DNA from: Kitasatospora albolonga
GTDB lineage: Bacteria > Actinomycetota > Actinomycetes > Streptomycetales > Streptomycetaceae
DNA length: 64,000 bases
Assembly (NCBI GenBank): GCA_002082585.1
Contig: CP020563.1
Location: forward strand, 620,001 to 684,000
Direction: 5' to 3'
In this document: one piece after another, positions 1,938-20,368 of the stretch
How positions within the stretch are numbered: position 1 is the first letter of the stretch
Layout: each line of letters starts with the position of its first letter
Made by a program: the position numbers and the translations under genes
The notes under the pieces: generated by a model
What the model saw: the letters and a program-made list of their open reading frames with translations, nothing else
What the model was told of the DNA's origin: nothing
The model's database searches: none

Positions 1938-2170
1938 GGGCCGACGATAGCCAGCGGCCTTGCGCACCACATCATCCCTGTGCAGGAGGCAGGAGCGACG
2001 AAAGTGAACAGGGCCAGGTGTGCCGGTGCCGGTGGGAGCACGCACGGGAGCGCCTTTGGTCGTCCCGGGGCGCGACTTTCCGGGGCTGCTCCGCAGGGGC
2101 CCGGGTCACGACGATGGTTCGGCAGCCGAGAGACGGCGGCGCGGAGGATGCGAGCAGAGGGAGACACCCC

Positions 2171-2764
2171 ATGGAGACCACGCACCTGCAGGCGACCGAC
2201 CGGTTCGTCGTGAGCCGGAAGACGGCCCTGATGACCAACGAGTACGTGGTGACGGCCGCCCGGTCCGACGGCACGGCGGGCGAGGTCGTCGCGTTCGCCC
2301 GGCAGACCCCGATGGCCCTCACGGAAGAGGTGACCATCTACACCGACGAGTCCCGGAAGTGGGTCCTGTGCACCTTCGAGGCCGACCAGATCATGGACGT
2401 GGGCGCGGTCTACACGGTGCGGGACGAGGACGGGCGGCCCATCGGTTCGTTCCGTGAGAAGACCATGACCTCGCTGCTGCGCTCGACCTGGGTCCTCGAT
2501 CAGCCGGAACTCGCCGAGCTCACCGGGCGGGAGCGCAACGCGGCGCTGGCCGTGCTGCGCCGGGTCTGGGACTTCCTGCCGGGCACCGACTTCGTACCGT
2601 TCGCATGGCCGCGCCACTTCGACTTCGCCGAGGGCGACAAGCGCTGGATGGCGGTCGAGCGGAAGTTCGGGCTGCGCGACCGCTACCTGGTGGACATCGC
2701 GAGCGCGGGCCTCGACCGCCGTCTGGCCATCGCCCAGGCCGTGGCGCTGGACGCCCTGCGATGA
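2171..2764 (+). CDS. LURP-one-related (Tubby C-terminal-like) protein
   Basis: A 197-residue soluble protein matching the LURP-one-related family: repeated beta-strand segments such as ALMTNEYVV, ARQTPMALTEEVTIY and VYTVRDEDGRPIGSFREK, and a terminal helix AIAQAVALDAL. Proteins of this fold resemble Tubby C-terminal or scramblase domains, but their bacterial role is not settled, so I give no function. ATG 2171 is preferred because gagggag lies just upstream; the frame is open back to about 2018 without good support. The gene lies between, and in opposite orientation to, the histidine kinase and response regulator genes. Confidence 0.75.
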   Translation: METTHLQATDRFVVSRKTALMTNEYVVTAARSDGTAGEVVAFARQTPMALTEEVTIYTDESRKWVLCTFEADQIMDVGAVYTVRDEDGRPIGSFREKTMTSLLRSTWVLDQPELAELTGRERNAALAVLRRVWDFLPGTDFVPFAWPRHFDFAEGDKRWMAVERKFGLRDRYLVDIASAGLDRRLAIAQAVALDALR

Positions 2765-2790
2765 CATCGGAGGCCGGACATCGGATATCG

Positions 2791-2832
2791 GACGTCCGAC
2801 GTCCGACGTCCGACGTCCGACGTCCGACGTCG
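2791..2832. repeat. six tandem copies of a 7-bp unit (gacgtcc)
   Basis: Five perfect gacgtcc units and a sixth ending in g run directly behind the stop of the LURP-one-like gene and about 50 bp before the 3' end of the response regulator. Each junction recreates the palindrome GGACGTCC, so the tract can also fold. It lies between convergent genes and could end transcription from both sides or simply be a slippage-prone microsatellite. Confidence 0.85.
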
Positions 2833-2880
2833 GCGAGAAGAGGAACCCCCGGACCCGCGACCACATCCGCCACAGCCGGT

Positions 2881-3543
2881 TCAGACCCCGCCGGGACGCA
2901 GCCCGGCGTCCCGGGCGAGCAGCGCCGCCTGCACCCGGTTGTCGCAGCCGAGTTTGGCCAGGATGCGACTGACGTACGTCTTCACGGTGGCCTCGCTGGC
3001 GTGCAGCCGCCTGCCCGTGTCCGCGTTGGACAGCCCCTCCCCGAGGAGGGCCAGGACATCGCGTTCCCGCGCGGTCAGCTTCTCCAGGCGCCGTCTGGCC
3101 TCCTCCGCGCGGGCGGTCGCCTCCGGCGCCGAGATCGTGTCGACCACATGCCGGGTGGCCGTCGGCGAGAGGTAGGCGTTCCCCCCGGCCACCGCCCGTA
3201 CAGCCTGGATCAGTTCACCGGGCGCGGAGTCCTTGAGCAGGAAGCCCGCACTGCCGTGCCCGAGCGCCCGCAGCACGTTGTCGCGTTCACCGAACGTCGT
3301 CAGCATCAGCACCCGTGCACCGGGCACGGACCGGCGCAGCTCCGCGAGGGCCGTCAGGCCGTCCATCACGGGCATCTGGATGTCCAGCAGCGCGACATCG
3401 ACGGCGGTCTCGCGGACGGTCCGCACCGCCTCCCGGCCGTCGGCGGCCTCCGCGACCACGTCGATGTCGGCGGCCGAGGTGAGGATCGCCCGGATGCCGG
3501 CCCGGATGAGCGGCTCGTCATCGGCGATGAGGACCCGGATCAC
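2881..3543 (-). CDS. NarL/FixJ-family response regulator
   Basis: A 220-residue response regulator. The receiver domain runs from about 1 to 120, with acidic residues in IADDE, phospho-acceptor Asp54 (VALLDIQMP) and conserved Lys104 (FLLKDS). A LuxR-type helix-turn-helix follows at about 153-215 (LTARERDVLALLGEGLSNAD, then ATVKTYVSRIL). GTG 3543 is chosen because it starts right at IRVLIADDE and has aggaga upstream; the frame is open to 3780, but that extension is not family-like. It is the obvious partner of the kinase at 84-1937, separated from it by the oppositely oriented LURP-one-like gene. Confidence 0.93.
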   Translation of the reverse strand: MIRVLIADDEPLIRAGIRAILTSAADIDVVAEAADGREAVRTVRETAVDVALLDIQMPVMDGLTALAELRRSVPGARVLMLTTFGERDNVLRALGHGSAGFLLKDSAPGELIQAVRAVAGGNAYLSPTATRHVVDTISAPEATARAEEARRRLEKLTARERDVLALLGEGLSNADTGRRLHASEATVKTYVSRILAKLGCDNRVQAALLARDAGLRPGGV

Positions 3544-3934
3544 TAGGTCTCCTGCGCGGTAGCGGTAGCGGTGGGGAATTGGCGGGGAAGACGGATGGCA
3601 CAGCGTGGCTATCATGCCCGGTCCGACCGCGGTGGAGCGGGCGGGGAGCCGGGAGGGCCAACCGAGCTCAACCTCCCGTACCCGGTTGTTCTCACCTGCG
3701 ACGCACAGGCGTGCCCTCGCCCACAACCTGACCGGCTTGATCAACCGGCTGGTGTACTCGGACACCACCAGGATGCGCACGTGATGCCATAGCAGCGGAA
3801 GGAGTCGCCCGTGAGCTCACGGGCGATTTCCCCGCCCCCCTTCTCGTGATGACAAGGAACTGGGAGTTCTCGGTTCCGTTGAGACTGAACGGTACGGAAG
3901 CCTGGCTCCCTCACCGGCTCGGTCTGCCGGCGAA
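3544..3934. other. intergenic region between response regulator and 1732-residue NTPase gene
   Basis: This holds the upstream region of the response regulator (a ggtagc-repeat stretch near 3555-3572) and the downstream region of the large NTPase gene. I found no supported gene. The only distinct structure is the perfect palindrome listed at 3805-3826. Confidence 0.6.
3805..3826. terminator. 22-bp perfect palindrome, probable terminator or operator
   Basis: The arms tcgcccgtgag and ctcacgggcga are perfect complements with no spacer, about 110 bp downstream of the stop of the 1732-residue NTPase gene. In a transcript it would make a stable hairpin. A dimeric repressor could also bind it. Position favours the end of the three-gene operon. 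Confidence 0.5.
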
Positions 3935-6900
3935 TCAGCCGACGTCGTTCGCAGTCCTCCCGGAGAAGAGCCGTGTGGTGCTCTGGCGCAGGCGACGGGT
4001 GTCCAGCGAGGCAACCGAGGTGGCGGCCTGGATATGAGTTTCGAAGCAGGCACGGTGCGGGCGGAGCACCGCAGCGAGGTCGGGGTGGGACTCAGCGAAC
4101 TCGGTCAGGTCGGCCAGGTCCCTGGTGGCCGCGTCGAAGAGTCGGCTGAGGTCACCGAGCTGTTTGACGAGTTCGCCAAGTCGACCGGCCGCTGTGGCGC
4201 CGACCAGCCCCAGAGCAAGGTCCCGGGGCGAACGCGGCGGATGGCTGACAAGACGGTCCACCGCCAGAATCTGGTGACGGTCCCGCCAAGGGGTGGCGGG
4301 CAGCCGGCTCAGGGCGCGGGAGACCGATGGGGCGTCCGCAAGCAACGGCTCCCGCGCCGACGGCCTTCCGAGGTTGCGGACGCCGAAACCGAACGTCGAC
4401 AGGGCATGGCAGGCATGGCCCACGTCCCACCACATGGCCGAGTCGTCCAGGACGATCTCTTGGGACAGCAGGGAGACGACCCGGTCGTTGACGGCCGATG
4501 CGACGGCGCCGGCGCACTGAGGCTGCAGCCGGACCGCGAGCCGCAGCAACAGCACCCCCACATGCGGGTCGACGTGCTTCACCACCTTGGCCCAGCCGAC
4601 CTCGTTGAGCGCGTCGAGCACCACCAGCGCCCCGGCATTGTCATCAAGGCTGGTCAGGAGGGCGGCGAGGCCGATGGCCGGTTCCAGATCGGCGAGAACA
4701 GCAAGCCTCAGCCGCCGTTCCAGCTTCCTGTGGTCGATCTTCGGAACCAGTTCGAGCGCCCAGCGCCGCTCCCACAGGGCCATGGTTCTCAGGATGTCCC
4801 GGATAACCCGCGGGCTGGAGACGGTGGTGATGATGAGCTTCTTCAGCTCGTACGTCGTCGTGGTCCAGTCCGCGTGGAGCGCTCTGCCGGGTCCGACGCC
4901 TATCCGCGCGAGGTGCAGGGCCGCCGTGTACTGCTCGGACGGGTTCTGCAGCAGCTGCAGTTCCTCGGTGAAGATCCTCATCAGCGTCGCGTCGCCGGTG
5001 AGCCCCTGGTAGACGGGCTCCCCCAAGCCCGCCAGGTCCTCGAGGGCCGCGAGCAGCCCGGCCGCCGCCACCGGGTTCTGGTACATCTCGCTGCGCGTCC
5101 GCCAGGCCAGACGTGACTCCTGCGTCGAGTGGACGGTGCGCATCGTGAGTCCGCCGTATCTGGTGAGCAGCCTGGTGACGAAGCCCCGGTCGACATGACC
5201 GAGGACACGCAGCAGCTGCGCGAACTCCCCACCGGTCCGAACTGAGTTGAGCCGGTCCATCCAGACGTCCGGACGGCCGGTGATCTTGCTTGTCCTCTGG
5301 AGGAGGGCCGCCCCGGAGATACCGTCGGTGTGCCGCATCGTGCGGGCTATCTCCCGGCATGCCTCAGCGACCGGGATGGTCTGCGCGTTTGCCAGGCGCT
5401 GCGCCAGTTCGCGAACGTCGAATGTCTGCGCGTACCGGCGGGGGGCTTGAGGGTAGAGAGCACGGGCCAGCCGGTGAAACTCCGCCTGCGCGTCCGGGGG
5501 ATACCAGACGCTCATACCGTCCAGGAGATCGCCGATACCGACCTTTTCACGCAGTTTCTCCAGGAAACCCGTGCCCAGCTCGGGGTCGGCTCCGAGTCGC
5601 AGGGCAAGCCGGGGACCCCACACCCGTCGGGATGTGGTGAGGGTCTGCGTGACGATGTCGACCATCAGGTCCAGGCAGTTCACGCGGTACGAGACCTGCG
5701 CCTCCCACAAGCCTTTCACCACGTGGTACTTCACGGAGGGACGTGGGTCTGTCTGCAGCCAGTCGGCCACGGTCTCCTCACCGAACGCGTCACCGAGCCG
5801 CTGCGCGAAGGTCCTGCCGTGCTGGTGGTAGGGGTCCTCCACCGCAGACGTCACGGACAGCAGCATCCCCGCAGCCCTGGGGTCATTCTTCGCAGCTTGG
5901 GCCAGGCTCCTGATGAACGCCTCGTCGGGTTCGAGGTCGGCAGCACTGCGCACCGGTCGCCGGGCGGGAGCGGCCAACAGCAGGCAGGCGCACCAGGCGT
6001 GCAGGCTCTGTACCACCCTCAGAAGAGCGACGGTCTCCATCGGCGAGGCACGGCGCAGCAGGGCACGGAGCGCGTCCAGATAGCGGCCCCGGTCCCAACT
6101 GGTGTCCACGGCCCGCTTGAAGATCTCGTTGCGGTGCATACCCGAGGTCCGCCGCAGCTCCTGCAACGCGATGATGACGTCGCGGGGACTGCTGTGGTCG
6201 AGCGCGGGCTGGAGAAGGTCCTGGTACTCGTCGATCATTTCTGCCCACTCGGTCCGCTCCACCTGACGCCGCAACATCATTCCGGCGAGCATGACGGCGA
6301 ATCCGTCCTGAGCCTTGACCCGGTACTCGGCCAGCAGTTCGGGTCCCGGCTCCCGGTCGACCGGGTGGTATCCGGCGGCGTCCTCGTAGTGGATCTCGGT
6401 GTCCTCCGCCACGCGCCGCCATAGCCGGCGCTGCAGCCGCAGGGCTCGCAGCACCAGGAAGTAATCGGCCACCCGGGTGGGGCTCAGGTCAGTGACGACC
6501 TCCGCGACTCGCTTGACGATGACCTCGTTCAGATCCGCGCTCTGGAACCACTCGATCAGGCTGAGTAGGTGGAGGCGTTCCTGAGCGGTTCCCTCACCGC
6601 TGCTGACAGCGGCGTTCACTTGAACCTTCAGCCACGAGGCGACGTCGTTGAAATCGAGTCGGCCGGTGGACATCGCGTGCCGGATCCCGCGGATGACGTT
6701 CACCAGGTCGTGCAGCCGAAGGGGAGCTGGATCTTCCTTGAGCCGCTGCGTCAGCTGCAGGACGAAGTCGTCGGCCGTCGCCTCGTCGAGAGAGGTGCCG
6801 AGCGCCGTCAGACAGCGGGCCAGTTCAACAACCTGCGCCCGTTGGAGCCAGTCGTGGAGCACGCCGTCGGCACGGGTGAGGTCAAGGAGGTCGGCCGCCA

Positions 6901-9133
6901 CCTGGGCTCGGTAGAGCCGGGCGCCGAGCAGCCACAGGAGGACCTCGTGGGGGGCCTCACGCATCAGTGTCCCGACCCGGTGCCGCACCAGTTCGACGAC
7001 CTTCTCCCGCACCCGTCGCTCGCCCGCCCGGGGCACCAGGTCGGGTTCTTCGGGGTCCTCCTCGATCTGCAGCACTCGTCGCAGTATCCGCTCGCTGTCC
7101 TCGACGCTCCCGACCCTCGCCAGCCCCTCCCCGGCCAGGAACTCGACACCGAGGACCTGTAGTTGATCCTCGGTGAGGTCGATGAGGGTCTCCTCGGGGA
7201 CTGCCGCATGAATCAGGGAGGTCGCAGCGGCCCGGGCCACGGCCTCCTGTTCGCGAAGACCCAGCCCGTCGAAGCAGGCGAGGACGGGGTCATCGCCCCC
7301 GCCGGTACGCATCTGCCTGATGAGCACTCCGGGGTCCCGGGTGCCGTCCTCCCGTTCGATCTCGGCCAGCCCGGCCCGGCGGTCGAGAGTGCCGGGGTGA
7401 GCCCGGTTCGCCTGCTCGACAAAGGCCCTGAGGCGCGGCTTGCCCACAACGGACGGAACGATGTCGATGCTGTCCGTCTTCCACTCATTGGCGGCGGAGA
7501 GGTCGTACTCCAGAACGGCGAGCACGCTCGCCCGGACGGATTCCGACACCATGGGAAGCAGGTCGCCCACCGCGTTGTTGCCGCTTTGGAGCGGCAACAG
7601 GCCGTCCAGGATCAGAAGGCGGGGCTTGGTGGGTCCGTCCTGCTCCAGCAGAGCGGTCGCATGGTGGCAGGCTTCGATCAGCGGGTCACGGTCGGGCAGT
7701 TCGCCACGGCGGGACCGGAGCGCCTGCACCTGCCAGCCCTGGCCTCGCAGCTCTTCGGCCAGCAGCCGGGTGATGGTGGTCTTCCCACTGCGCACAGCGC
7801 CGCCGATCACGGCCAGGCGCCTGCTGTCAGCGGCCCGCTTCCGGGGGACAGCCTGCTTTCCGACCGTGGCCTTCGCCCTGCGGTGCGCGCCGTCCGGCCC
7901 GGACTCTTTCGGCTTCTCCCCGTGGAAGAATGTCACAAGCTCGCCGACCTGGCTCATCGGGATGTCACCGGACCGGGGCTCCAGCGGATCGGGCACCCAG
8001 CCCAGGCGCGCCAGCTCCTCGACGTGGCGAGCGCGCTTCCAGGTGACCCAGCGCGAGCCCCAGACGGCTGTGGCGGCAGCGTCCAGGGTCGGCTCGGCGG
8101 GCACGTCGGCGGGCGATGCTCGCTCGTCTCCTGGGCCTGCCAGGACCCAACCACTCTCAGTGGGGGCGAGGACGGTGGTGATGCCCATCTGTCCGAACGC
8201 CTCCACTCTGCCGGACAGCTCCGTCGACCGCATCGGCGCGAAGAGCTGACCCTCCGTCCGGGCGCCGACGGCCAGGATGCCGGGGCGGGGAAGACCCGTG
8301 GTCTCCGCGAGGATGTCGAGTGCATAGCCGAGCGCGATCGCGGGGTCATCAGCAAAGTGCGAGGCGGGCCACACGCCGACCGGCAAGGGTGGTCTCCCCG
8401 CCGGGCCGACGACTCCGAAGCCGGTGAGGAGCCCCACTGCCGCTTCCCATGCCGCCACGAGGTGCGGGCCGGCCCACGTCTGGGGCCTGACCCACTCCGG
8501 TGGACCGGCCGGGAGCAGCCTGTCCACGGCCGGTTCCACTGCGGCTGCCATTACCTCCGCGATCTTCCCGGACGCTATGGTCTCCACCCTGCCCGCCGGA
8601 CCCGTCGCGTCCAGTCCGTCGGTCAAGGTGATCGCGAGGTGTCCTCCGGGCACGTCGAACACCGCCGCACGCGTCGGTGCCCTCCGGGGACTTGCTTCGT
8701 CGGCCTCGGCCTCCGGAGGGGAAGCCGCGGGGCCCTGGGCCCACAATGTCGCGAGCTGGTCCAGTACTTCCTCGGACAGCTCGTGGATGACGCGACGCAA
8801 CGGGCCGGGTACCCCCGCTGAGCCGTCGAGTTCCGGCGACTCGGCTGCAGCCCGCTGGGCATCGCCGTCCAAGTAGGCATCGACGAGGAGGGCGAGCCCA
8901 CTGTTCTCGGCCACCGTCAGCCAGCCCGGCAGAGAGACAGCGGCGTCCGGCCCGTCCAGCAGTGTGCCGAGCCAACCGTCGTCCAGATCGAACTCCCCTA
9001 GGGCATCTGCGAGTTCCTGCCCGTCGATGGTCCGGGCGGCCGCCTGGTTCAGCAACAGAAGGAGTCCGGCCAGCCGATCGCGGACGAACGCGCTGCCGGG
9101 CGTACGAGCCGAGGTGTGTGGTGCTGTTTCCAT
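3935..9133 (-). CDS. very large P-loop NTPase with degenerate Lon-like domain and long helical tail
   Basis: A 1732-residue protein, last gene of the three-gene operon, 21 bp behind the caspase gene and with a strong ggagg site before ATG 9133. Residues about 1-140 are helical. Residues about 155-325 show a Lon-protease-like pattern ending GILAVGARTEGQ...GITTVLAP, but the expected catalytic Ser and Lys positions appear as Ala and Ser, so any protease activity is doubtful. A Walker A GGAVRSGKT follows (445-452) and a Walker B-like LLILD (Asp510). About 1100 helical residues fill the rest, probably HEAT- or TPR-like repeats. Such architecture is typical of large NTP-driven sensor proteins in conflict systems. 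No substrate can be named, and the helical tail could be the recognition surface. Confidence 0.8.
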   Translation of the reverse strand: METAPHTSARTPGSAFVRDRLAGLLLLLNQAAARTIDGQELADALGEFDLDDGWLGTLLDGPDAAVSLPGWLTVAENSGLALLVDAYLDGDAQRAAAESPELDGSAGVPGPLRRVIHELSEEVLDQLATLWAQGPAASPPEAEADEASPRRAPTRAAVFDVPGGHLAITLTDGLDATGPAGRVETIASGKIAEVMAAAVEPAVDRLLPAGPPEWVRPQTWAGPHLVAAWEAAVGLLTGFGVVGPAGRPPLPVGVWPASHFADDPAIALGYALDILAETTGLPRPGILAVGARTEGQLFAPMRSTELSGRVEAFGQMGITTVLAPTESGWVLAGPGDERASPADVPAEPTLDAAATAVWGSRWVTWKRARHVEELARLGWVPDPLEPRSGDIPMSQVGELVTFFHGEKPKESGPDGAHRRAKATVGKQAVPRKRAADSRRLAVIGGAVRSGKTTITRLLAEELRGQGWQVQALRSRRGELPDRDPLIEACHHATALLEQDGPTKPRLLILDGLLPLQSGNNAVGDLLPMVSESVRASVLAVLEYDLSAANEWKTDSIDIVPSVVGKPRLRAFVEQANRAHPGTLDRRAGLAEIEREDGTRDPGVLIRQMRTGGGDDPVLACFDGLGLREQEAVARAAATSLIHAAVPEETLIDLTEDQLQVLGVEFLAGEGLARVGSVEDSERILRRVLQIEEDPEEPDLVPRAGERRVREKVVELVRHRVGTLMREAPHEVLLWLLGARLYRAQVAADLLDLTRADGVLHDWLQRAQVVELARCLTALGTSLDEATADDFVLQLTQRLKEDPAPLRLHDLVNVIRGIRHAMSTGRLDFNDVASWLKVQVNAAVSSGEGTAQERLHLLSLIEWFQSADLNEVIVKRVAEVVTDLSPTRVADYFLVLRALRLQRRLWRRVAEDTEIHYEDAAGYHPVDREPGPELLAEYRVKAQDGFAVMLAGMMLRRQVERTEWAEMIDEYQDLLQPALDHSSPRDVIIALQELRRTSGMHRNEIFKRAVDTSWDRGRYLDALRALLRRASPMETVALLRVVQSLHAWCACLLLAAPARRPVRSAADLEPDEAFIRSLAQAAKNDPRAAGMLLSVTSAVEDPYHQHGRTFAQRLGDAFGEETVADWLQTDPRPSVKYHVVKGLWEAQVSYRVNCLDLMVDIVTQTLTTSRRVWGPRLALRLGADPELGTGFLEKLREKVGIGDLLDGMSVWYPPDAQAEFHRLARALYPQAPRRYAQTFDVRELAQRLANAQTIPVAEACREIARTMRHTDGISGAALLQRTSKITGRPDVWMDRLNSVRTGGEFAQLLRVLGHVDRGFVTRLLTRYGGLTMRTVHSTQESRLAWRTRSEMYQNPVAAAGLLAALEDLAGLGEPVYQGLTGDATLMRIFTEELQLLQNPSEQYTAALHLARIGVGPGRALHADWTTTTYELKKLIITTVSSPRVIRDILRTMALWERRWALELVPKIDHRKLERRLRLAVLADLEPAIGLAALLTSLDDNAGALVVLDALNEVGWAKVVKHVDPHVGVLLLRLAVRLQPQCAGAVASAVNDRVVSLLSQEIVLDDSAMWWDVGHACHALSTFGFGVRNLGRPSAREPLLADAPSVSRALSRLPATPWRDRHQILAVDRLVSHPPRSPRDLALGLVGATAAGRLGELVKQLGDLSRLFDAATRDLADLTEFAESHPDLAAVLRPHRACFETHIQAATSVASLDTRRLRQSTTRLFSGRTANDVG

Positions 9134-9154
9134 CCTGATTGCCTCCTGGTGCCG

Positions 9155-12100
9155 TTACCGCGTCCCACCGGGCACGGGACTCTGACCGGTCCGGACGCGC
9201 AGCAGGGCGAGCGCGCCGGACGTGGCCACGATCAGGCCGCCGGAGCCGTGAGAGCAGATTCCGGCCGGCAGTCCGTCGAGCGGCCAGCGGGTGCCGAGCC
9301 CGTCGACCGCGCTGTAGGTGTCCAGCCAGCTGCCGCCGCGGTCGCCTCCGGCGACGGCGAAACAACCGCCCGTCATGAGGGCAGCACGTACGGAGTGTCC
9401 GAGTGGTGGTACGGAGCCCACGAGCGGGGCAGCACCCCCTACGAACGTGCAGGTGCCACTGGCGTCCACGATCACCGCGGTCTCGCCGTCGGCCGAGGCC
9501 GTCAGGCGCACGGGATGCGGGCACAGTGCCACTCTCTTGGGTGTGGCCTGCCCGTACGGGGCCCATCGGTGGACCACTCCGTCGAGGGTGGCCGCCCACA
9601 CGACCGGTTCCTCCCGCCGGCCGGCCATGGCCAGGGCGACGACTGGTTTCCGGAACACTTCGCCACGCACGGGATCGGCGCCGGAGGCGGACAGCACCTC
9701 GACGGCACAGCCATCGGCCAGGGCCAGCATGCCTGCCGGGTGGGACGCGGAAGGCCCGGGGAACTCGCCGGACCCTTTCCTCAGCACCTGGCCGACATCT
9801 GCCGCGTCCCGTGAGCATCGGAGCACGGACCCGTCGGTGAGAACGAGCAGCGCGCAGGCCCCCTCGGCATCCGCGCCGACTCCGGCCTCCGCCGGGTTTC
9901 CCATGGCCTGGATCGCATGCAGGTCCTTGATGGGGCCGACACCGGGCCTCGACGCCACCTGCTCGCCGTCGGCGCCGTTCCACCAGATCAGCGTGCCGTC
10001 GTCGTGCGCGGTGATGAGCGACCCCGGTCCGGGTTCCCCGGCCGCCGACACACGTGTGGTCGTATGGCGGTCACGGGCTCCCGCGTTCGCCCAGAGCACC
10101 TCCAGTGATCCGCCGGGTACGACGACAGGCCCAGCCGCACGGGCGAGGTCGGTCAAGCCCTGACGGGCAGCCGTGAGGGCGAGGGCGAACCGCCGTTGCT
10201 GCCGTGTCCCACGCCGAGGCTGGCTGTTCCACACGGCGGTACGGGCGGCCTGGTCCGGGGCACTCAGGGCGCGAACCATTCGCGTCATGGTGGGGCCCGG
10301 CAGTGCGAGCAGGAAGTCGGGATCGTCCAGGAGGCACTGCATACCGCTCGTCGGATCGGCCGCGGCGGCGGCGAGGACGGCCAGCACGTGTGGCGGGACG
10401 CCTTCCCAGCCGCAGTCGGCCACGCGGAGTTCGTCGAGCAGGTGACGCAGCACGGTACGGCGGGGTCCCTGCGCACCGGCGGGCGGTGGGTGACGTGGTC
10501 GCCATAAGCCCTGGACGTCCGTCGCGTCCCCCTTGACCGGCTGCCCGCCGGGAGCGTCTCGCCACACGAGAAGGGGCCCGCAGGCGGACAGGCAGGACAC
10601 CAGCTCCGACGCCGACAGCGGGCCGGACGCCGAGGTGCCGGCCAGACGTGAAGCGACGGCGGCCCAGGTGCGCGCGTCGAGGAACAGGTCGTTGCCGAAG
10701 GAGCACAGCGCGGTCAGGGTGTCCGCGACCGCTGTGGCGGTCTGCGGAAGGAACTCCTGGAGCGTGCGACGGAGCAGGCCGTCGAGCCGGACGGCGGCGG
10801 CCTCGCAGGCACGTTCCAGAGAGCCGCTGCCCTCCCGGAGCAGGACGTCCGCGGCGGCGACGGCCGCGGCGAAGCAGCCGTCGCAGATCTGCTCCAGGGT
10901 GGCGATGGCACCGTCGGACACCTGCCCGCCGTAAGCGAGTCGAGTCCGCAGATAGGCGCCCACGGACGAGGCTCCCAGGCGCACTGGGGCATCCAGATCG
11001 AGGATCAGCCGTGCGGGCCGGTCGGTCGGCTGACGGGTGGTGCCTACCACGACCCGGACAGCCGGCAGCGTGGCCAGTGCCTCGACCAGTTCGGTGAGTA
11101 CGGCGGCGGGCTCCTTGGCCTCGTACAGGTGGTCGATGACGATGCTGCGGACGGAGCCTGAACCGTTCTTCCTGAGCTCGGCCAGCAGGCTGGGGACGCT
11201 CGCGGCGGTAAGCCCCAGCGACCTGGCGATGTCGGCAGCAAGCCGGTCGGCCGTTCGGCCACTGGCGTTGACCGCGGCCAGGGTCAGTTCGCCGGTCGGC
11301 AGGACGCCGTGCCGGGCCACCGTGGGGAGAGCGTCGCGCAGGCCGGCGGTCGCCGTGGTGACGACACGGCCCAGCAGCGCGGTCTTGCCGCTGCCGTGCG
11401 AGCCGGACAGCCACAGCACAGGGGCAGTCCCGGTGCCGGTCAGATGATCGAGGACGGTGCGCAGCTCGGCGTCACGGCCGGTGAAGTACCAGCCCGGCGA
11501 AGCGTCGTTGACCACTCCGCGGGAGGCCCAACCCCAGCCGGGGGGCAGCCAGGTCGGCGGTTCGGGCCGCATGTACCGGGGATTGGGCAGCACCCGGCAG
11601 CGAGGTTCGCCGTGACCGGCCACGATCCGCGCCTTCTGACGGGTGTGGCTCAGGGCGTTCTGTACGGATTCCATCACCTGGGTCAGGTCCAGGTACGGCT
11701 GATCGGTGGAGGGGACGGCGGCGTCGCGCAACGCGGTGGTGAGGGCCCGGGAAAAGACGGTTTCCAGTGCCTGGTCGGTCCGCCGGGCCGCCGCCACGAC
11801 CCACAGGTCCAGCTGGTCGTCGTCGGTCCGGTGGACCGACTGCGCGATGGTGTCCAGCAGAGCCTGCTCGCCACCGGGGGCGGCACCGCACGCGTCCAGG
11901 ATCAGCAGAACCTGGGCGAGGTCTCGACGCTGCCACAATGCCCTGATCAGATCAGCCGGTTTGGTGACCACCCGGTCATCCGTGCTCTGCTGGTCGTCGG
12001 GAGCCTCATACTCCGTCGGCGCCAGCACCCAGTCCGTTCTGAGCTTGAAACCGTGGCCCGTGGCGTAGATGACAAGGGTCGCCGTTCGCGCGCCGGTATG

Positions 12101-12331
12101 ACCGGCGGCGCCCTTGCTCCAGGTGAACAGGGAGTCCCGCAGGTCGGTGTGGGACAGTGCGTCCCCGTCGCCGTCCGTGCCGGGGAACAACTCGGTCAGG
12201 CCGAGTGCGCCGAGACCCGCACGAACGGCCCGGACTTCTTCCGGCACCTTGTCCAGGTCGCCGAACGATCCGCCGTATACGGGGCGCCCGGAAATACAGA
12301 AATACCCCGTGTGGCTCCCGCTGTCAGTCAA
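9155..12331 (-). CDS. caspase-like protease fused to STAND-type NTPase and C-terminal beta-propeller
   Basis: A 1058-residue three-part protein. The N-terminal 230 residues form a caspase (peptidase C14) domain with His93 in YATGHGF and Cys148 in LLILDACGA, so the catalytic dyad looks intact. A P-loop NTPase follows with Walker A GSHGSGKT (310-317) and Walker B-like SIVIDH (Asp400), then a helical section to about 740. The last 300 residues have repeated WD-like strands (DDGTLIWWNG, DGVVHRWAPYG), fitting a beta-propeller sensor. The start is TTG 12331: aaggtgg precedes it, and the TTG overlaps the stop of the upstream hydrolase gene by 8 bp, implying coupled translation. By family logic, ligand sensing would trigger NTP-driven oligomerisation and protease activation; that is inference. 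Confidence 0.88.
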   Translation of the reverse strand: MTDSGSHTGYFCISGRPVYGGSFGDLDKVPEEVRAVRAGLGALGLTELFPGTDGDGDALSHTDLRDSLFTWSKGAAGHTGARTATLVIYATGHGFKLRTDWVLAPTEYEAPDDQQSTDDRVVTKPADLIRALWQRRDLAQVLLILDACGAAPGGEQALLDTIAQSVHRTDDDQLDLWVVAAARRTDQALETVFSRALTTALRDAAVPSTDQPYLDLTQVMESVQNALSHTRQKARIVAGHGEPRCRVLPNPRYMRPEPPTWLPPGWGWASRGVVNDASPGWYFTGRDAELRTVLDHLTGTGTAPVLWLSGSHGSGKTALLGRVVTTATAGLRDALPTVARHGVLPTGELTLAAVNASGRTADRLAADIARSLGLTAASVPSLLAELRKNGSGSVRSIVIDHLYEAKEPAAVLTELVEALATLPAVRVVVGTTRQPTDRPARLILDLDAPVRLGASSVGAYLRTRLAYGGQVSDGAIATLEQICDGCFAAAVAAADVLLREGSGSLERACEAAAVRLDGLLRRTLQEFLPQTATAVADTLTALCSFGNDLFLDARTWAAVASRLAGTSASGPLSASELVSCLSACGPLLVWRDAPGGQPVKGDATDVQGLWRPRHPPPAGAQGPRRTVLRHLLDELRVADCGWEGVPPHVLAVLAAAAADPTSGMQCLLDDPDFLLALPGPTMTRMVRALSAPDQAARTAVWNSQPRRGTRQQRRFALALTAARQGLTDLARAAGPVVVPGGSLEVLWANAGARDRHTTTRVSAAGEPGPGSLITAHDDGTLIWWNGADGEQVASRPGVGPIKDLHAIQAMGNPAEAGVGADAEGACALLVLTDGSVLRCSRDAADVGQVLRKGSGEFPGPSASHPAGMLALADGCAVEVLSASGADPVRGEVFRKPVVALAMAGRREEPVVWAATLDGVVHRWAPYGQATPKRVALCPHPVRLTASADGETAVIVDASGTCTFVGGAAPLVGSVPPLGHSVRAALMTGGCFAVAGGDRGGSWLDTYSAVDGLGTRWPLDGLPAGICSHGSGGLIVATSGALALLRVRTGQSPVPGGTR

Positions 12332-13151
12332 GGGCCACCTTCACGGCCTGCGCGGTCCGGACGTTCTTCAGGTACGTGGCCGCATCATGTGCGGTGCCAC
12401 GGGAGTTGGAGGCCGGAAGGTCATGGATCTTCCCGGCGAAAAGGCCGTCAAGCTCCTTGACCGAGGCTACGACGTCTTCCTTCGCAGCGATGTTGACCCA
12501 GGTGGCGATACCAGTGGGCCAGGGAGCCTGACAGGCGTCACAGAGCGGATGCAGTTCGCGCAGCACCGGGCGCAGGCCCAGCGGGGAGCCGAGGGTGATC
12601 AAGGTCGTTGCGGAAGTCGCCTCGTGGCACCTCAACCAGTCGTAGGCGACCACGCTCCCCAGCGAGTGGGCGATGATCAGACGGGGCTGTGACTCCATGG
12701 CGGTGCTGAACTCGGCAAGGACCGCCTTCCTGAAATCGTCGTCGCGCAGGTAGCGGGCCACCTGCTTGATGAAGCCGATGATCCTGGCGGCCGTGCCTCC
12801 GAAGACCTTGCGCGACTGGAGTACGCGGATCGCCCACTGCACACTCCGTGGAGCGTATGCCGCCTTGCTCGACGCCTCGTATGAGGGCTCCTCGACCGCT
12901 TCGGCCAGCGCGACCAGGAGATCCTCCTCGACGCCCGGCCTCAGGTCGCCGACCACGTACTGCCAGCCGGTACCGGCCTTTCCGTCGTTGTACAGGTGCC
13001 CGTAGAACGCGCACTCCACGGTGAGGTCCTCAGCCTCCGAGAACCTGACGTTCCGCAGGCCCTCCCGCAGAGCGGCCAGCCAGGAGTCGTGCATCTCGTC
13101 ACGGCTCGACATATTGGCGCAAATGCCATGTACTGCGACAACGTCAGCCAT
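12324..13151 (-). CDS. alpha/beta hydrolase (lipase-like), first gene of the caspase/STAND operon
   Basis: A 275-residue alpha/beta hydrolase. VVAVHGI gives the oxyanion-hole motif near the N-terminus, IIAHSLGS the nucleophile elbow, AKEDVVA a likely catalytic Asp, and GTAHDAATYL the likely catalytic His. No signal peptide is seen, so it should be cytoplasmic. ATG 13151 has gggggtgg upstream; an in-frame GTG lies nine bases earlier. Coupling to a caspase-STAND gene suggests either an effector enzyme, for example acting on lipids, or a target of the protease. The true substrate cannot be read from sequence. Confidence 0.85.
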   Translation of the reverse strand: MADVVAVHGICANMSSRDEMHDSWLAALREGLRNVRFSEAEDLTVECAFYGHLYNDGKAGTGWQYVVGDLRPGVEEDLLVALAEAVEEPSYEASSKAAYAPRSVQWAIRVLQSRKVFGGTAARIIGFIKQVARYLRDDDFRKAVLAEFSTAMESQPRLIIAHSLGSVVAYDWLRCHEATSATTLITLGSPLGLRPVLRELHPLCDACQAPWPTGIATWVNIAAKEDVVASVKELDGLFAGKIHDLPASNSRGTAHDAATYLKNVRTAQAVKVALD

Positions 13152-13181
13152 CACAACCACCCCCGTGTCGTCCTTTGCCCC

Positions 13182-13204
13182 CGCTGTTCATCAAGTGAAC
13201 AGCG
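13182..13204. promoter_or_regulatory. inverted repeat upstream of the hydrolase/caspase/NTPase operon
   Basis: Arms cgctgttca and tgaacagcg pair perfectly around the five-base spacer tcaag. The repeat sits about 30 bp before the hydrolase start codon, where a repressor site or a 5' leader hairpin could control the operon. Confidence 0.5.
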
Positions 13205-14085: not shown

Positions 14086-14738
14086 CGAAGCGAACCTGGC
14101 CTTCGATCAGGCGTCGGTGGCGAAGTTCACCCAGGGCGTAGGTGCGACGATCGACCAGCTCGGCGACCTCGGCGGCGCCACGGGCTCCGTAATGGGCAAG
14201 GGATTCTCGGGTCTGGCCCTGACGGGAATGGAAGCCGGGCACCACGGGCTGTCGGTGGATTTCGAGGACTTCTGCGAACGGTAGGAGTGGGGGGTGCGCG
14301 CTGGTGAGCGACGCGAGCGGGCTCGCGACCCGTCTCGGGCTGGCGGCGGGCACCCAGTGGGAACACGACCAGTATGTCCAGGACTCGCTGAAGATCGGCG
14401 TCAACTCCCTGACGGGCGGCAGCCCCCACGCCAGTCAGGAGGACATCGCCCAGCAGGACTGGGAGGACGTCTTCACACCCGACTACCTGGACCCGGACTG
14501 GAGTTCCGAGTCGTTCGAGAAGGCCGGCCAGGACATGGAACAGACCTGGAAGGACACCGGCCACAGCGTCCTCACCGAGGGGCAGGGCGGTCGCGAGGCG
14601 GAGAGGCTCAGGACCGGCCTCGGCATCGGTGACGAGCAGTGGGACCGGGCACTGGACGACACGTTCGGGCCGTCGCCCGAGGAACGCGCCCAGCAGGCGC
14701 AGCGACAGGGCGATTCGGACACGGCTGGGGACGACTGA
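14075..14738 (+). pseudogene. interrupted WXG-like (ESX-type) partner gene
   Basis: Two open pieces look like one former protein. The first (ATG 14075, 69 codons) ends ...VDFEDFCER followed by TAG at 14282. The text after the stop reads EWGVRA, then shifts frame into the second piece, which runs from GTG 14304 to 14738 (LATRLGLAAGTQWEHDQYVQ). I recall intact relatives having CERWEWGVRALV at this junction, so a TGG to TAG change plus a one-base loss near 14300 would explain both lesions. It may instead be two separately translated small genes, since GTG 14304 has a purine-rich ggagtgggggg upstream. It sits between SseB and Rhs genes and probably served secretion or folding of the toxin. Confidence 0.6.
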
Positions 14739-14740
14739 AG

Positions 14741-17700
14741 TTGGGCGTCGGGGACTTCATCAGGGACATCACGCCGGACTCGGTCGAGGACGTGATCGAG
14801 GACGGTGTCGAGTGGGCCGGCAACCGGGTCGAGGACGCCGGGAACTGGACGGCGGACCGGCTGGACGACGTGGGCTGGGAATCCGGTTCGGACTGGGTGC
14901 GGGAGCAGTCGCGTTCGGCGGCTGATCGGATGGGCGCCGAAGCAGACGAGATGGATCTCGGGCAGACCGAGGACAAGACCAAGCTGGTCTACGGAAGCCC
15001 TGGCAAGATCCGCTCCACGGCAAAGCAACTGCGTTCCTTCCAGAAGGCGTTCGAGGACGTCGGCGGCGGATTGAAGGGGCTCGACTCCTCACGCCTGAAG
15101 GGCGAGGCGGCCGATGCGCTGCGCACCGCGGTGAGCACCCAGCCACCGAAGTGGTTCACCGGTGCCGATGCCTGTGAGAAGGCAGCTGCCGCCTGGAGGC
15201 GTACGCCGGCACCGTAACCTGGGCTCAGAACCAGGCGCAGACGGCGATCGCCGTGTGGAAAGAAGGCGTCAAGGCATCCCGGGAAGCAGCTGAAGGCCAC
15301 GCAAGCGGATCGACGACTACAACAAGGCCGTCGACCGCTACAACGCGCAGGCCCCCGAGCAGCGCAACCCCGGCACTCTGCCGCCCTGCCCCGCGCCGAC
15401 GTTCGACGACCCGGGCAAAGCGCTGTTGCAGGACGCGCAGGAACTCCTCGCCCAGGCTCGCGAGCAGCGGAACACCGCCGCGGAGACCGCCCGGAGCGCG
15501 GTCCGGGCCGCCCGCGACACAGCCCCGGACAAGCCCTCGTACGCACAGCAGGTGGGTGACGGTCTGCGGGAATTGCAGATCATCAAGGGCCACGTCGGCG
15601 GTGGCGCCATCAAGGGCACCGCGGGGCTGGTGAACTTCGTCCGGGGAATCAATCCGCTGGATGCGTACAACATCACCCACCCCGCCGAGTACGTCACCAG
15701 CCTCGCTGCCGGCCTGGTGGTCACCGCCAACGACCCGGTCGGCACCGGCAAGCAGATGATCAGCGACTTCATGAAGGACCCTGCGGAAGGGGTCGGCCGA
15801 CTGCTGCCCGACGCGGCGCTGACCGCGGCCACCGGTGGAGGCGGAGGCGTCGTCAAGGGTGTCCGCGTCGCCTTGGACGCGGCCAAGGCGTCCCGGGCGC
15901 GGAGGCTGCTCGACAACGCTCCCGACGGCGCCCACACTCGCCCCGACGGGCACCGCGTCGTCGCCGGTACCGACTCGGTCGACCTCGCCTCGGGCCGGAT
16001 GTTCCTGCCTCAGACAGATCTGGTGCTGCCCGGCACCCTGCCGCTGGTCTTCGGTCGCCGCACCGAATCCGGCCTGTTGGCAGGCCGGTTCCTCGGCCCT
16101 TCCTGGACCTCCACCGTCGATGAGCGACTGGAGATCGACGCGGTCGGCGTGGTACACGTCACCGCCGACGGGCTGCTGTTCCCCTATCCCCACCCCGCCC
16201 CGGGTGCCCCGACCAGTCCTGAGTCCGGGACCGCCCGCACGCTCCTGGCCCGTGAAGTGAGCGGCGACTACACGGTCACCGACCCCGGCACGGGCCTGGT
16301 CCGGCACTTCACCGCCCCGGCGGACAGCGAACCGGGCGAGGACGGCGATGCCTGGCTGGACCGGGTCGAAGACCGCCACGGCAACTGGTGGGCCGTGGAA
16401 CGAGGCGAGAACGGCACGCCGCTCGCCCTGACCTGTTCGGCAGGTCGTCGGGTCACCGTCACGGTGACCGACGGCAGAGTCACGGCCCTGTCCCTGGCGG
16501 GAGCGGGTGAGGACGGGTCCGCCCTGCCCCTGATGGGCTACGGCTACAAGGACGGAAACCTCACCACCGTCGTCCGGCCGTCCGGCGCGACCACCACTTT
16601 CCTTCACGACGAACGCCGCCGCGTCGTCGCCGAAGGCGGTCGGGCCGGCCACATCCAGATCACTCTCACCTACACGGACCCGGACCCGGACACCGGCCTC
16701 CGTACCACCAGCCTCACCACTGCCGACGGACGCACGACCCGGCACCAGATCGATCGCCGCTGCCAGGTGGTGGCCACCACCGATCCGCTCGGTCACACCA
16801 CCCGCTTCACCCATGACGCCCGCGGCAACACCCTGACCCGCACCGATCCTCTGGGCCTTACCACCGCCTTCACCCACGACGAGGACGGCCGCCTGCTCGC
16901 CGTCACCCGCCCCGACGGAAGTGAACTGCGCACCGTGCGCGACCCGTCGGGGCTGCCCACAGAGTTCCGGGGGCCGGACGGTGCCCGCTGGCTGCAGGAA
17001 TTCGACGACCAAGGCAACCGCACCGCCGTCGTCGACCCGGCTGGGGCCACCACCCGCTACGCCTACGACGGCCGGGGCAGGCTGACCACCGTCACCGACG
17101 CCCTCGGCGCCACCACCACCGTGGTCTGCGACGCGGCGGGGCTGCCGATCGCGGTGACCGATCCGGTCGGTGGCACCACCCGCCTGGAACGCGACGCTCT
17201 GGGCCGGGTCGTGCGGACCATCGACCCGGTGGGCAACGTCACCCGGGCCGTCCTGGACGAGGACGGCAATCTCGCCCGCCGTGTGGCCCCGGACGGTTCC
17301 ACCGAGTCGTGGACGTACGACGGTGAGGGGAACCCCCTCAGCCACACCGGCCCGGCCGGCGGCATATCCCGCTTCACTTACACACACTTCGACCTGCTCA
17401 CCATGCGCACCGGTCCCGACGGCACGTCCCACACCTTCGAGTACGACGCGGACCTGCGGCTCACCCGGGTCACCGGCCCGCACTGCAGCTGGTCCTACAC
17501 GTACGACGCCGCCGGCCGGCTCACTTCCGAGACGGACTTCGACGGCCGCACCCTCACCTACCGGCACAACGCCGCGGGGCAGCTCATCGCCCGGTCCGAC
17601 GCACTGGGCCGGACCGTGTCCTACACCTACGACCAGCTCGGCCAAGCGGTCCGCAAGGACGTGGCGGGCAGGGTCACCACCTACGTGTACGACCGGGCCG

Positions 17701-19438
17701 GGCGCCTGTCGCACGTGGCCGGACCGGACAGCGAGATCGTCTACGTGTACGACCGGCGTGGCCGAACCAAGACCGAACTCATCGACGGCCGCGCCATGAA
17801 CTACACCTACGACATCCTGGGCCGCCGGGCTCGCCGCATCACTCCGACCGGCGCGATCACCGAGTACGCCTACGACAACGCCGGCCGTGCCGCCCGTATG
17901 ACCAGCGGCGGCCATGAGATCGCCTTCACCCACGACGCGGCCGGCCGGGAACTCGAGCGTGTCTTCGGCGGATCTCTCACCCTGGCCTCCGCCTGGGACG
18001 AGGCAGGCAGGATCAGTGCCCAGCACCTGACGGCCGAGGGCCGTTCCCTCAACCGCCGTCACTACACACACCGTGCCGACGGCCACCTCAGGTCCATGAC
18101 CGACGATCTGTCAGGCTCACGCACCTTCGATCTGGACCCGACCGGCCGGGTCAACGCTGTCCACGCCGAGGGATGGACCGAGCGCTACACCTACGACGCC
18201 GCCGGCAATCAGACGACGGCTTCCTGGCCCGACTCCCATCCCGGCCACGAAGCCACCGGTCCCCGCGTCTACAGCGGGACCTCCGTGACCAGGGCCGGTA
18301 ACGTTCGCTTCGAACACGACGCCCTCGGCCGTGTGACCCTGCGCCGGAGAGCCCGCCTGTCGCGCAGGCCCGACACCTGGCACTACGAATGGGACGTCGA
18401 GGACCGTCTCGCCGCCGTCGTCACTCCCGACGGCACCCGCTGGCGCTATCTCCACGACCCTCTGGGCCGCCGCACCGCCAAACAGCGCCTCACCGACGAC
18501 GGGCAGGGCATCGCGGAGGAAATCCGCTTCACCTGGGACGGTATGACCCTGTGCGAACAGACGGTCCACGCACCGGGTCTTCCCCATGTGGTTGCTCTCA
18601 CCTGGGACCATCGTGGCCTGGTACCGCTGTCCCAGACGGAACGCCTCCTCAGCCCGGACAGCCGTCAGGAAGAGATCGACCGCCGGTTCTTCGCCATTGC
18701 CACCGACCTCGTGGGAACGCCCACCGAGCTCGTCGACGAATCCGGCGAGATCGTCTGGCGTGCCAGGAGCGCCCTCTGGGGCACCACCGCCTGGGCCCGC
18801 TCCAGCACCGCCTACACCCCGCTGCGCTTCCCCGGCCAGTACTACGACCCGGAAACCGGCCTCCACTACAACCTCTTCCGCCACTATGACCCGGAGACCG
18901 GTCGCTACACCTCCCCGGACCCTCTCGGCCTCGGCCCCGCACCGAATCCTGTCGCCTATGTGCACAACCCGTTCACCGTCTGCGACCCACTCGGCCTCTC
19001 GCCCTACTCGAAGTTCAAAGGTTTGGGCTGGCTGACGGACAAGCTGCTCGAGCGCCCGTCGTACCGGTACCAGCGGCTCGTCACCGACCAGAGCTACGAG
19101 CAACAGTGGGTCCTGCCCGACGGCCGGGAAGTACACGTCGACGGCGGCCCGCGGGACGGCTGGATCACGGAGGCGAAGTGGACCGGCGGCGACAAGGTCG
19201 GCGAGTGGGAGAATCCCCCTACAACCCCGATTTCAAGTACTACAACGAGAGCAGAATCACCGCCCAGGCAGACAAGCTGCTCGCCCTCAATGAGGACCTC
19301 GGAGGCAAGGGCGTCCGCTATATGGTGTCCAATGAATGGGGCGCCGCGCATGTGAACGAAGTGCTGGCCAAGGCATTCCCTGAGGCATACGCCAGCGGGC
19401 AGCTGAAGGCGTATCACGTGCATGAGTGGAATGAGTTC
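14741..19438 (+). pseudogene. Rhs-family polymorphic toxin with nuclease-like C-terminus, broken by at least three one-base losses
   Basis: Starting at TTG 14741 (LGVGDFIRDITPDSVED), a WXG-like helical N-terminus leads into a DUF6531-like segment (VDLASGRMFLPQTDLVLPG), many YD repeats (such as YAYDGRGRL and YTYDAAGRL) and the Rhs core end RFPGQYYDPETGLHYN...PLGL. After DPLGL comes the variable toxin, where RDGWITEAKW resembles a PD-(D/E)xK nuclease core. Frames break near 15192 (gcc gcc tgg should read ...LEAYAGTV), near 15304 (gcaagcgg, expected ...KRIDDYN) and near 19213 (gagaatccccct, expected ...SPYNPDF). The longest intact frame (about 15306-19355) lacks both the N-terminus and the end of the toxin. 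The last toxin part now reads straight into the immunity frame. Confidence 0.75.
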
Positions 19439-19921: not shown

Positions 19922-20368
19922 CCCGGCCCGCGCCAGGGTGCCGTACTCCCACCGAGGGCCCAGGCTCCCTCCGGTGCGCAGGGAGGGGTTGAGCGCCTCG
20001 CCTTCGCGGCCGTGCCCGCCTACCGGCACGGCCGCGAGTGCGGTCGGCTGTGTTCGCGGACCGACGGGCGGCTGTGGGGCTCCTTCGCGGCGGCGATCAC
20101 GGTCGCGTCGTTCACCGTTCCGAGCCGGGCAAGCTCCAGGGCCACGGTGCTCCGACATCGCCAGTTGACGATGAAGATCCGGACCATCCCTAGGCCAGAG
20201 CTCGCCCCCCCCTGCTTGATAGCCAGCATTCGCAAGGGCAGAGGCCATGTGCGTTGTGCACTACCAGCAGGCGAAGAGCCTGATGCCAGATGTGACGCTC
20301 CGCCCGGCGACCCCGGTGCTCTCCGTTGATAGGGCCGGAGATTCCCTCTGCGGTCGCAGCAGAGCGGC
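19922..20368. other. non-coding region between immunity gene and yjbQ
   Basis: About 450 bp between convergent genes. Apart from the hairpin at 20005-20036 I see no gene or motif. This is the inner right edge of the presumed integrated segment. Confidence 0.55.
20005..20036. terminator. hairpin between convergent immunity and yjbQ genes
   Basis: Arms cgcggccgtgcc and ggcacggccgcg form a perfect 12-bp stem with an eight-base loop. There is no T run, as is common for Streptomyces terminators. Confidence 0.6.

What the first reader, a model, noticed from the sequence alone, without database searches (positions are those of the whole stretch)
3935..13151. Three-gene operon: alpha/beta hydrolase, caspase-STAND-propeller, giant P-loop NTPase
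The three genes are on one strand with an 8-bp overlap and a 21-bp gap. They unite a hydrolase with intact-looking catalytic triad, a caspase with His93/Cys148 fused to a switch NTPase and propeller, and a 1732-residue NTPase. Caspase and STAND fusions are known from bacterial conflict systems, but I cannot place this exact trio. A ligand could trigger NTP hydrolysis, caspase action, and then hydrolase or NTPase effects that kill or halt the cell.
Basis: partly seen in the sequence, partly recalled or inferred. Interest (0 to 1): 0.82.

Follow-up and report, generated by a model that had tools for sequence, protein, structure and literature searches.

The report
Bacterial caspase operon with two switches
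Three adjacent genes in a Streptomyces-like genome, inherited together, encode a predicted suicide-defence machine: a hydrolase, a caspase built into an apoptosome-like switch protein, and a second giant switch protein, suggesting a sensor that triggers a protease that unleashes an enzyme.

Summary
On the minus strand lie an alpha/beta-hydrolase (275 aa), a caspase-STAND-propeller protein (1058 aa) and a 1732-aa protein, packed with an 8-bp overlap and a 21-bp gap. The hydrolase triad and caspase His/Cys are kept in 12 of 12 trio loci; the P-loop lysine in 11 of 12 (caspase protein) and 12 of 12 (giant). The caspase protein's best solved match is full-length Apaf-1. The giant itself looks like a STAND NTPase with a helical tail. 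Five of five genomes found with the giant as query, the window's own included, carry the whole trio in the same order. The hydrolase with a caspase-STAND protein occurs more widely without the giant, and the same hydrolase family sits beside VMAP proteins and fused to trypsin. So this is a new variant of known caspase/STAND conflict systems: a recurrent hydrolase-peptidase pair joined to two STAND switches. Best reading: STAND sensing activates the caspase, which activates the hydrolase, causing arrest or death. Predicted fold, conservation and linkage are shown; activity, trigger and order of events are inferred.

The parts
12324..13151 (-). alpha/beta-hydrolase gene, 275 aa; the best or equal-best conserved part of the trio
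   Evidence: alignment A3; weak Pfam matches (Abhydrolase_6 25 of 28 members at E<=0.1, best 7.9e-5; Hydrolase_4 24 of 28, best 6.8e-6); identity table
12663..12665 (-). codon of hydrolase Ser163 (AHSLGS)
   Evidence: 28 of 28 aligned, 12 of 12 trio loci
12474..12476 (-). codon of hydrolase Asp226
12387..12389 (-). codon of hydrolase His255
12324..12331 (-). 8-bp overlap of hydrolase and caspase genes; close packing also in L006-L012
9155..12331 (-). caspase-STAND-helical-propeller gene, 1058 aa
   Evidence: model m5347f0aaeef5 pLDDT 82.2; Foldseek best match full-length Apaf-1 E 1.6e-15, TM 0.22
11546..12331 (-). caspase domain, residues 1-262
12053..12055 (-). codon of caspase His93 (TGHG)
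   Evidence: 25 of 25 aligned, 23 of 23 aligned
11888..11890 (-). codon of caspase Cys148 (DAC)
   Evidence: 25 of 25 aligned, 23 of 23 aligned
10652..11530 (-). STAND NTPase domain, residues 268-560, Walker A at 310-317
   Evidence: AAA_16 in 25 of 25 members at E<=0.1, best 3.7e-9; motifs
10142..10651 (-). helical linker, residues 561-730
   Evidence: model
9188..10126 (-). WD40-type beta-propeller, residues 736-1048 (blade number not tested)
3935..9133 (-). giant gene, 1732 aa: N-terminal alpha+beta region, STAND NTPase, helical tail
7979..8671 (-). alpha+beta region, residues 155-385; Lon/S5-like only as an unproven suggestion
   Evidence: model; hhalign register but not significant; no credible PDB match
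6734..7996 (-). STAND NTPase core of the giant, residues about 380-800
7778..7804 (-). Walker A of the giant (GGAVRSGKT), residues 444-452
   Evidence: GK[ST] in 12 of 12 trio loci
3938..7036 (-). tail of the giant, residues 700-1732; helical as far as modelled (residue 1190)
13184..13202 (.). palindrome CTGTTCA-N5-TGAACAG upstream of the hydrolase start, possible operator (inference)
   Evidence: seen, then counted: 1 match in window, 0 of 100 shuffles; pattern chosen after sight

Best explanation
A three-gene conflict (abortive-infection-type) system. In resting cells the hydrolase is held inactive and both STAND proteins are in a closed, nucleotide-bound state. A trigger (phage component or host damage) is bound by the helical tail of the giant STAND and/or the propeller of the caspase protein. 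NTP-dependent opening and assembly brings the cis-fused caspases together, as an apoptosome with the protease built into the same chain. The caspase then cleaves and switches on the hydrolase encoded just upstream, which attacks a lipid or other ester and stops or kills the cell. Shown here: gene linkage and co-inheritance, conserved catalytic residues, predicted folds of the two large proteins, and reuse of the hydrolase family beside peptidases in other conflict systems. Inferred: the trigger, who senses, oligomerisation, caspase-to-hydrolase cleavage, the hydrolase substrate, and the outcome.
For: Linkage: 5 of 5 genomes found by the giant, own included, have all three genes in the same order; of 23 named loci found by the caspase query 7 have the trio, 11 a hydrolase plus caspase-STAND-type match without giant, 5 no hydrolase or giant match. 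Co-inheritance. Caspase. Apaf-1-like order of domains. Giant as STAND: the first ten VIA rows are STAND-type proteins (that 8bob is MalT, and that MalT, SAMD9 and NRC1 are STAND-type, is recalled); Avs3, SAMD9, Avs5 and NLRP3 are Foldseek ranks 1, 2, 4, 5. Hydrolase reuse: of 32 hydrolase neighbourhoods fetched from a 61-genome sample, 2 trio, 10 caspase-STAND, 3 STAND without detected caspase, 9 VMAP, 2 trypsin fusions, 6 other. Precedent: canu and Avs1/Hachiman pairs in which a caspase or trypsin activates a neighbouring pro-nuclease, with published assays (PMC12799240, abstract and passages). Patchy presence, 3 of 101 genus genomes and 3 of 148 class genomes, and third-position GC of 0.83 in all three genes against 0.90 or more in 32 of the 47 other ORFs kept by my caller, fit an accessory locus.
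Against: No activity data. PADLOC models give only weak, scattered matches. No match of the giant in the plasmid or phage collections at E<=1e-5. Of 10 neighbouring ORFs scanned, the recognisable ones are a two-component system, an RHS/T7SS toxin locus and a UPF0047 protein, not known defence genes; nearest neighbours have third-position GC 0.86-0.93, so that contrast is small locally. Among close orthologues propeller and tail are not clearly faster-evolving than the rest, unlike a typical arms-race receptor, although the propeller profile no longer hits in L011, L066 and L067. Foldseek rank 3 for the giant is an unrelated RNA-editing protein, only 4 matches reach E<=0.001, and TM-scores are low; VIA rows below the tenth are mostly other AAA+ proteins. 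No cleavage site was identified.
Confidence: 0.5

Rival explanations
1. Sensor-helper pair: the giant is the dedicated sensor and the caspase-STAND is a helper/executor that has no ligand of its own, like paired plant NLRs; signalling passes from STAND to STAND.
For: Two STAND-type proteins in one operon, co-inherited; caspase-STAND homologues occur without the giant in other loci, so the giant looks like an added receptor.
Against: No interaction data; the caspase protein keeps its P-loop lysine in 11 of 12 loci and a propeller of its own.
Confidence: 0.3
2. The giant is a brake or chaperone that holds the caspase-STAND inactive, an antitoxin-like partner, rather than a sensor.
For: Linkage of the giant to the pair in 5 of 5 genomes; no enzymatic effector domain recognised on it.
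Against: Hydrolase/caspase-STAND pairs persist without it in 11 of 23 named loci and 10 of 32 sampled neighbourhoods; STAND-plus-long-tail architecture resembles Avs receptors.
Confidence: 0.15
3. A programmed cell-death or lysis device for development or for releasing something, not antiviral.
For: Caulobacter LypABC, a CARD-NLR-like system with peptidase domains, is needed for lysis during gene-transfer-agent release (PMC13236601, abstract); receptor regions are evenly conserved among close orthologues.
Against: Patchy presence, 3 of 101 genus genomes, unlike a core developmental gene.
Confidence: 0.15
4. The hydrolase is not the effector but an upstream processor or regulator, and the caspase kills by cutting many proteins itself, as described for type IV Thoeris.
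For: Type IV Thoeris caspase-like protease degrades cell proteins (described in PMC12847820, passages); the hydrolase gene lies first in the operon.
Against: The hydrolase has the highest identity of all domains in 10 of 11 comparisons and ties in the eleventh, and its family is reused with different peptidases.
Confidence: 0.2

Closest known systems
VMAP ternary conflict systems with caspase plus alpha/beta-hydrolase (Kaur et al. 2020, PMC7159879; passages read)
   Same: A caspase and a neighbouring alpha/beta-hydrolase; my hydrolase profile finds genes directly beside VMAP-M2 proteins (L088, L093 by Pfam; 10 VMAP-like proteins by phmmer among the loci scanned). The caspase in those is inferred from the paper and a D-x-C pattern in 8 of 10; my caspase profile hit only L083.
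   Different: No VMAP match in the trio and no MoxR or vWA match in 10 neighbouring ORFs; the caspase is fused to STAND and propeller, and a second STAND is added.
Metacaspase-NACHT-WD40 proteins (2012 survey, PMC3501461; passages read)
   Same: Caspase, STAND-type NTPase and WD40 propeller in one chain; called widely distributed there.
   Different: The NTPase here matches AAA_16 best rather than NACHT; no partner hydrolase or giant in the passages seen.
Canu and Avs1/Hachiman nuclease-protease pairs (PMC12799240; abstract and passages read)
   Same: A peptidase, caspase or trypsin, paired with a neighbouring enzyme and recurrently recruited by unrelated immune systems.
   Different: The paired enzyme is an alpha/beta-hydrolase, not an MBL nuclease; proteolytic activation is unproven here.
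Apaf-1 / Dark apoptosome
   Same: STAND, helical linker and WD40 propeller; Apaf-1 is the best Foldseek match (E 1.6e-15), Dark rank 12.
   Different: Caspase is in the same chain instead of being recruited; whole-chain TM 0.22 and rmsd 28, so the domain arrangement is not superposable.
Avs (AVAST) STAND receptors
   Same: Giant's best Foldseek match is Avs3, Avs5 rank 4; STAND plus long helical tail.
   Different: No recognised N-terminal effector; no Avs model among the PADLOC matches.
EACC1-caspase two-gene systems (PMC7159879; passages read)
   Same: Caspase domain matches NCBIfam caspase_w_EACC1 at E<=0.01 in 23 of 23 aligned members.
   Different: Window score 29-33 bits against a cut-off of 140; the upstream gene is a hydrolase.

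Membership tests
Caspase (clan CD) peptidase | His-Cys dyad in HG and [DE]xC motifs | tested here: met
   His93, Cys148 invariant in 23 of 23 aligned domains; DxC not found by pattern in 3 of 34 profile hits, all distant relatives
Caspase (clan CD) peptidase | Sequence-profile relation to solved clan-CD peptidases | tested here: met
   37 of 38 PDB matches at E<=1 are named clan-CD type, best 7e-4 Metacaspase-4, the rest 0.0085 or weaker (that GSU0716, the 38th, is caspase-like is recalled)
Caspase (clan CD) peptidase | Proteolytic activity | not testable with these tools
   needs an assay
STAND NTPase (caspase protein) | P-loop, Walker B and C-terminal superstructure domain | tested here: met
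   AAA_16 25 of 25 members; Walker B Asp 12 of 12, P-loop Lys 11 of 12, Arg in L010; propeller
STAND NTPase (giant) | P-loop NTPase core with following helical/winged-helix part and repeat tail | tested here: met
STAND NTPase (both) | NTP-dependent oligomerisation | not testable with these tools
   needs biochemistry
Alpha/beta-hydrolase | Nucleophile elbow G/AHSxG with ordered Ser-Asp-His triad | tested here: met
   28 of 28 aligned sequences, 12 of 12 trio loci
Alpha/beta-hydrolase | Fold match | tested here: inconclusive
   Pfam below curated cut-offs for the window protein; no PDB profile match at E<=0.1; no model made
VMAP ternary system | VMAP middle/C domain plus MoxR and vWA genes | tested here: not met
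   no VMAP match in the trio; 10 neighbouring ORFs scanned, none matching MoxR-type AAA or vWA
EACC1-caspase system | Upstream EACC1 one-TM gene | tested here: not met
   the upstream, overlapping gene is the hydrolase
EACC1-caspase system | NCBIfam caspase_w_EACC1 above cut-off | tested here: not met
   29-33 bits against 140
Avs (AVAST) | Match to known Avs family models | tested here: inconclusive
   no Avs model among PADLOC matches, but fold resemblance
Lon/S16-like domain in the giant N-terminus | Profile relation to Lon P domain | tested here: inconclusive
   hhalign puts positions 113-178 of the piece on the Lon GPSAG-GxK region, 28% identity, but score 19.6 lies within the controls' 10.8-20.6

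The most novel reading that the evidence does not exclude
A bacterial paired-receptor operon: a giant sensor STAND that signals to a second, helper STAND carrying its own caspase (a one-chain apoptosome plus protease), which then matures a pro-hydrolase. It would be a prokaryotic sensor-helper pair and a hydrolase member of the proteolytically activated effector class.
Probability: 0.3. Interest if true: 0.85.

Novelty: new variant of a known kind. Interest (0 to 1): 0.62.

Why it matters
It shows one operon in which two STAND-type switches, a caspase and a hydrolase are inherited as a unit, with the caspase protein laid out like Apaf-1 plus its protease. [quoted passage not shown] the hydrolase-peptidase pair, seen here with caspase-STAND, VMAP and trypsin partners, is a concrete, testable candidate. 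The dual STAND arrangement makes the question of sensor-helper receptor pairs in bacteria directly testable.

Tried and rejected
Lon/S16-like domain in the giant N-terminus: the model's strand-helix order and motif register looked right by eye, but hhalign was within controls (built on 18 of 20 loci; two lacked the motif by which I cut them), the PDB profile search gave two chance-like hits (E 1.3 and 3.1) and Pfam nothing consistent. Kept as a suggestion only.

Filing under a known defence system: PADLOC gave only E 0.009-0.07 matches for the window proteins; in the 20 giants of A2, 3 matched mad8 (best 9.8e-5), 1 PDC-S01 and 1 PprDinG, which I read as P-loop similarity. VMAP and EACC1 membership tested and not met.

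Phage or plasmid carriage: giant without match in both collections (records near the window's genome may be left out there). Caspase protein: 16 plasmid records, none covering 80%. Hydrolase: 53 plasmid records, 25 listed; I opened 6.

Flank comparison by tblastx was noisy. The one strong match is the L006 piece on the window stretch with the UPF0047 gene; I make no general claim on flanks. A family that Foldseek or VIA did not list is not excluded. Giant residues 1191-1732 and the hydrolase were not modelled.

Rows left out: caspase alignment A1 used 25 of 30 listed homologues (P0003 and P0027-P0030 left out); giant alignment A2 17 of 18 (P0048 left out) plus L010-L012; hydrolase alignment A3 27 of 120 listed plus the window; caspase-domain alignment A5 22 of 34 profile hits plus the window (L070 was prepared but not passed on). 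One search gave 37 rows; I dropped two from the window's own genome and three G049 rows that repeat one gene or its terminal copy, leaving 32. Of the 11 pair-only named loci, L013 and L016 are on short contigs, so a missing giant there is weak evidence; in L016 and L017 the hydrolase is on the opposite strand and the caspase profile does not hit. In L075 and L077, counted as caspase-STAND, the caspase hit is weak and lacks the motifs by pattern. Contig lengths listed for giant, caspase and hydrolase homologues often coincide; noted, not counted as proof.
Full report
Observation. The window is G000:C1:620001-684000 of an 8.03-Mb single-contig genome, probably Streptomyces to judge by its named homologues. 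The three genes lie on the minus strand as stated: hydrolase 12324-13151, caspase protein 9155-12331, giant 3935-9133. The 8-bp overlap and 21-bp gap follow from these coordinates. In L006-L012 the genes are equally close: caspase-giant gap -1 to 31 bases.

Conservation of the trio. The caspase query against the genome collection gave 23 loci. tblastn of the three proteins over them found all three, in order, in 7 of 23 (L006-L012: six Streptomyces and Micromonospora rosaria); hydrolase plus a caspase-STAND-type match without a detectable giant in 11 of 23; no hydrolase or giant match in 5 of 23. The stricter test starts from the giant: 3 of 101 genus genomes and 3 of 148 class genomes have it, each count including the window's own, so five distinct genomes; in 5 of 5 the caspase-STAND and hydrolase are adjacent, same order and strand. 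Hydrolase identity to the window falls from 79 to 40%, that of the caspase-protein domains from 72 to 20% and of the giant's from 79 to 20%. Distance matrices correlate at 0.99 (hydrolase-caspase), 0.98 (hydrolase-giant) and 0.995 (caspase-giant), 0 of 5000 permutations reaching the value; species relatedness contributes, so this shows co-inheritance, not contact. The hydrolase has the highest identity in 10 of 11 comparisons and ties in L006.

Hydrolase. Ser163, Asp226 and His255 are invariant in the 28 aligned sequences and 12 of 12 trio loci; Pfam abhydrolase matches are weak but present in 25 of 28. A length-variable, often acidic loop lies near residues 87-96, a possible regulatory or cleavage loop by inference.

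What else uses this hydrolase. The A3 profile found it in 25 of 61 genus genomes. I fetched 32 neighbourhoods outside the window's genome: 2 are the trio, 10 have a caspase-STAND protein, 3 a STAND without detected caspase, 9 a VMAP protein, 2 are trypsin fusions (L080, L082), 6 are other. VMAP-M2 was confirmed by Pfam in two (L088, L093), the other seven by phmmer to these. Named plasmids add an Agrobacterium gene annotated caspase family protein next to the hydrolase, a Leptolyngbya hydrolase next to a 2216-aa protein with a caspase match, a Rhodococcus hydrolase plus caspase-STAND, a Streptomyces hydrolase inside an ORF annotated as serine protease, one beside a VMAP-like protein and one beside a NACHT-WD protein on the other strand. 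The window's own genome has a second, divergent locus near 7.66-7.67 Mb with two STAND proteins that carry caspase-like motifs, read by eye, and a hydrolase.

Comparison with print. Kaur et al. report the alpha/beta-hydrolase with caspases in VMAP systems and a related one in GAP1-N1 systems (PMC7159879, passages), and infer that the two work together. Metacaspase-NACHT-WD40 chains were surveyed in 2012 (PMC3501461, passages). Caspases with bDLD3 that are often linked to an AP-ATPase gene are mentioned in PMC8195603 (passages). I found no description of this trio or of a two-STAND caspase operon in the listings of searches or in what I opened of seven papers; that library lacks most subscription papers.

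Mechanism and grading. Given the pro-nuclease precedents, in which a caspase or trypsin activates its neighbour (PMC12799240), the simplest reading is sensing by STAND protein(s), proximity activation of the caspase, activation of the hydrolase, and arrest or death. Only the architecture and linkage are shown. Against an arms-race receptor stands the even conservation of propeller and tail among close orthologues, although the propeller profile fails in the distant L011, L066 and L067. I grade it a new variant of a known kind: known domains and a partly known pair, with a third component and a dual-STAND arrangement that I did not find described.

Noticed in passing
G000:C1 about 7662750-7671400 (L029:7750-16410): A second, divergent locus in the same genome: two STAND proteins with caspase-like motifs (VTGHG/IDTC and LSHG/LDLC, read by eye), one with many WD40 repeats, and a hydrolase of the same family.
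   Followed up: partly
window 14639-19352, + strand: T7SS-signal protein followed by an RHS-repeat protein with DUF6531, a likely polymorphic toxin locus.
   Followed up: no
window 13184-13202: Palindrome with perfect 7-bp arms upstream of the hydrolase start, absent from 100 shuffles; the pattern was chosen after it was seen.
   Followed up: no
window 3938-13160: Third-codon-position GC is 0.83 in all three genes, against 0.90 or more in 32 of 47 other ORFs kept by my caller, some of which may be spurious; nearest neighbours 0.86-0.93.
   Followed up: partly
window 87-3780: Histidine kinase and LuxR-type response regulator just downstream of the trio.
   Followed up: no
L080:3130-5622, L082:8563-10707: The same hydrolase family in one chain with a trypsin-like peptidase.
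   Followed up: no
L019:8244-18727: Two hydrolase plus caspase-STAND pairs back to back on opposite strands.
   Followed up: no
L010, caspase-protein gene: In the Micromonospora trio the caspase protein's P-loop lysine is replaced by arginine.
   Followed up: no
L006:7850-8311 and window 20345-20806: A stretch upstream of the trio in L006 matches (83% in one frame) the window stretch that holds the UPF0047 gene (window 20372-20794), so the two trios may share a chromosomal site with the RHS locus lying between in the window.
   Followed up: no
L020:2474-3814: Beside a caspase-STAND protein without the usual hydrolase lies a different protein whose start looks lipase-like by eye.
   Followed up: no
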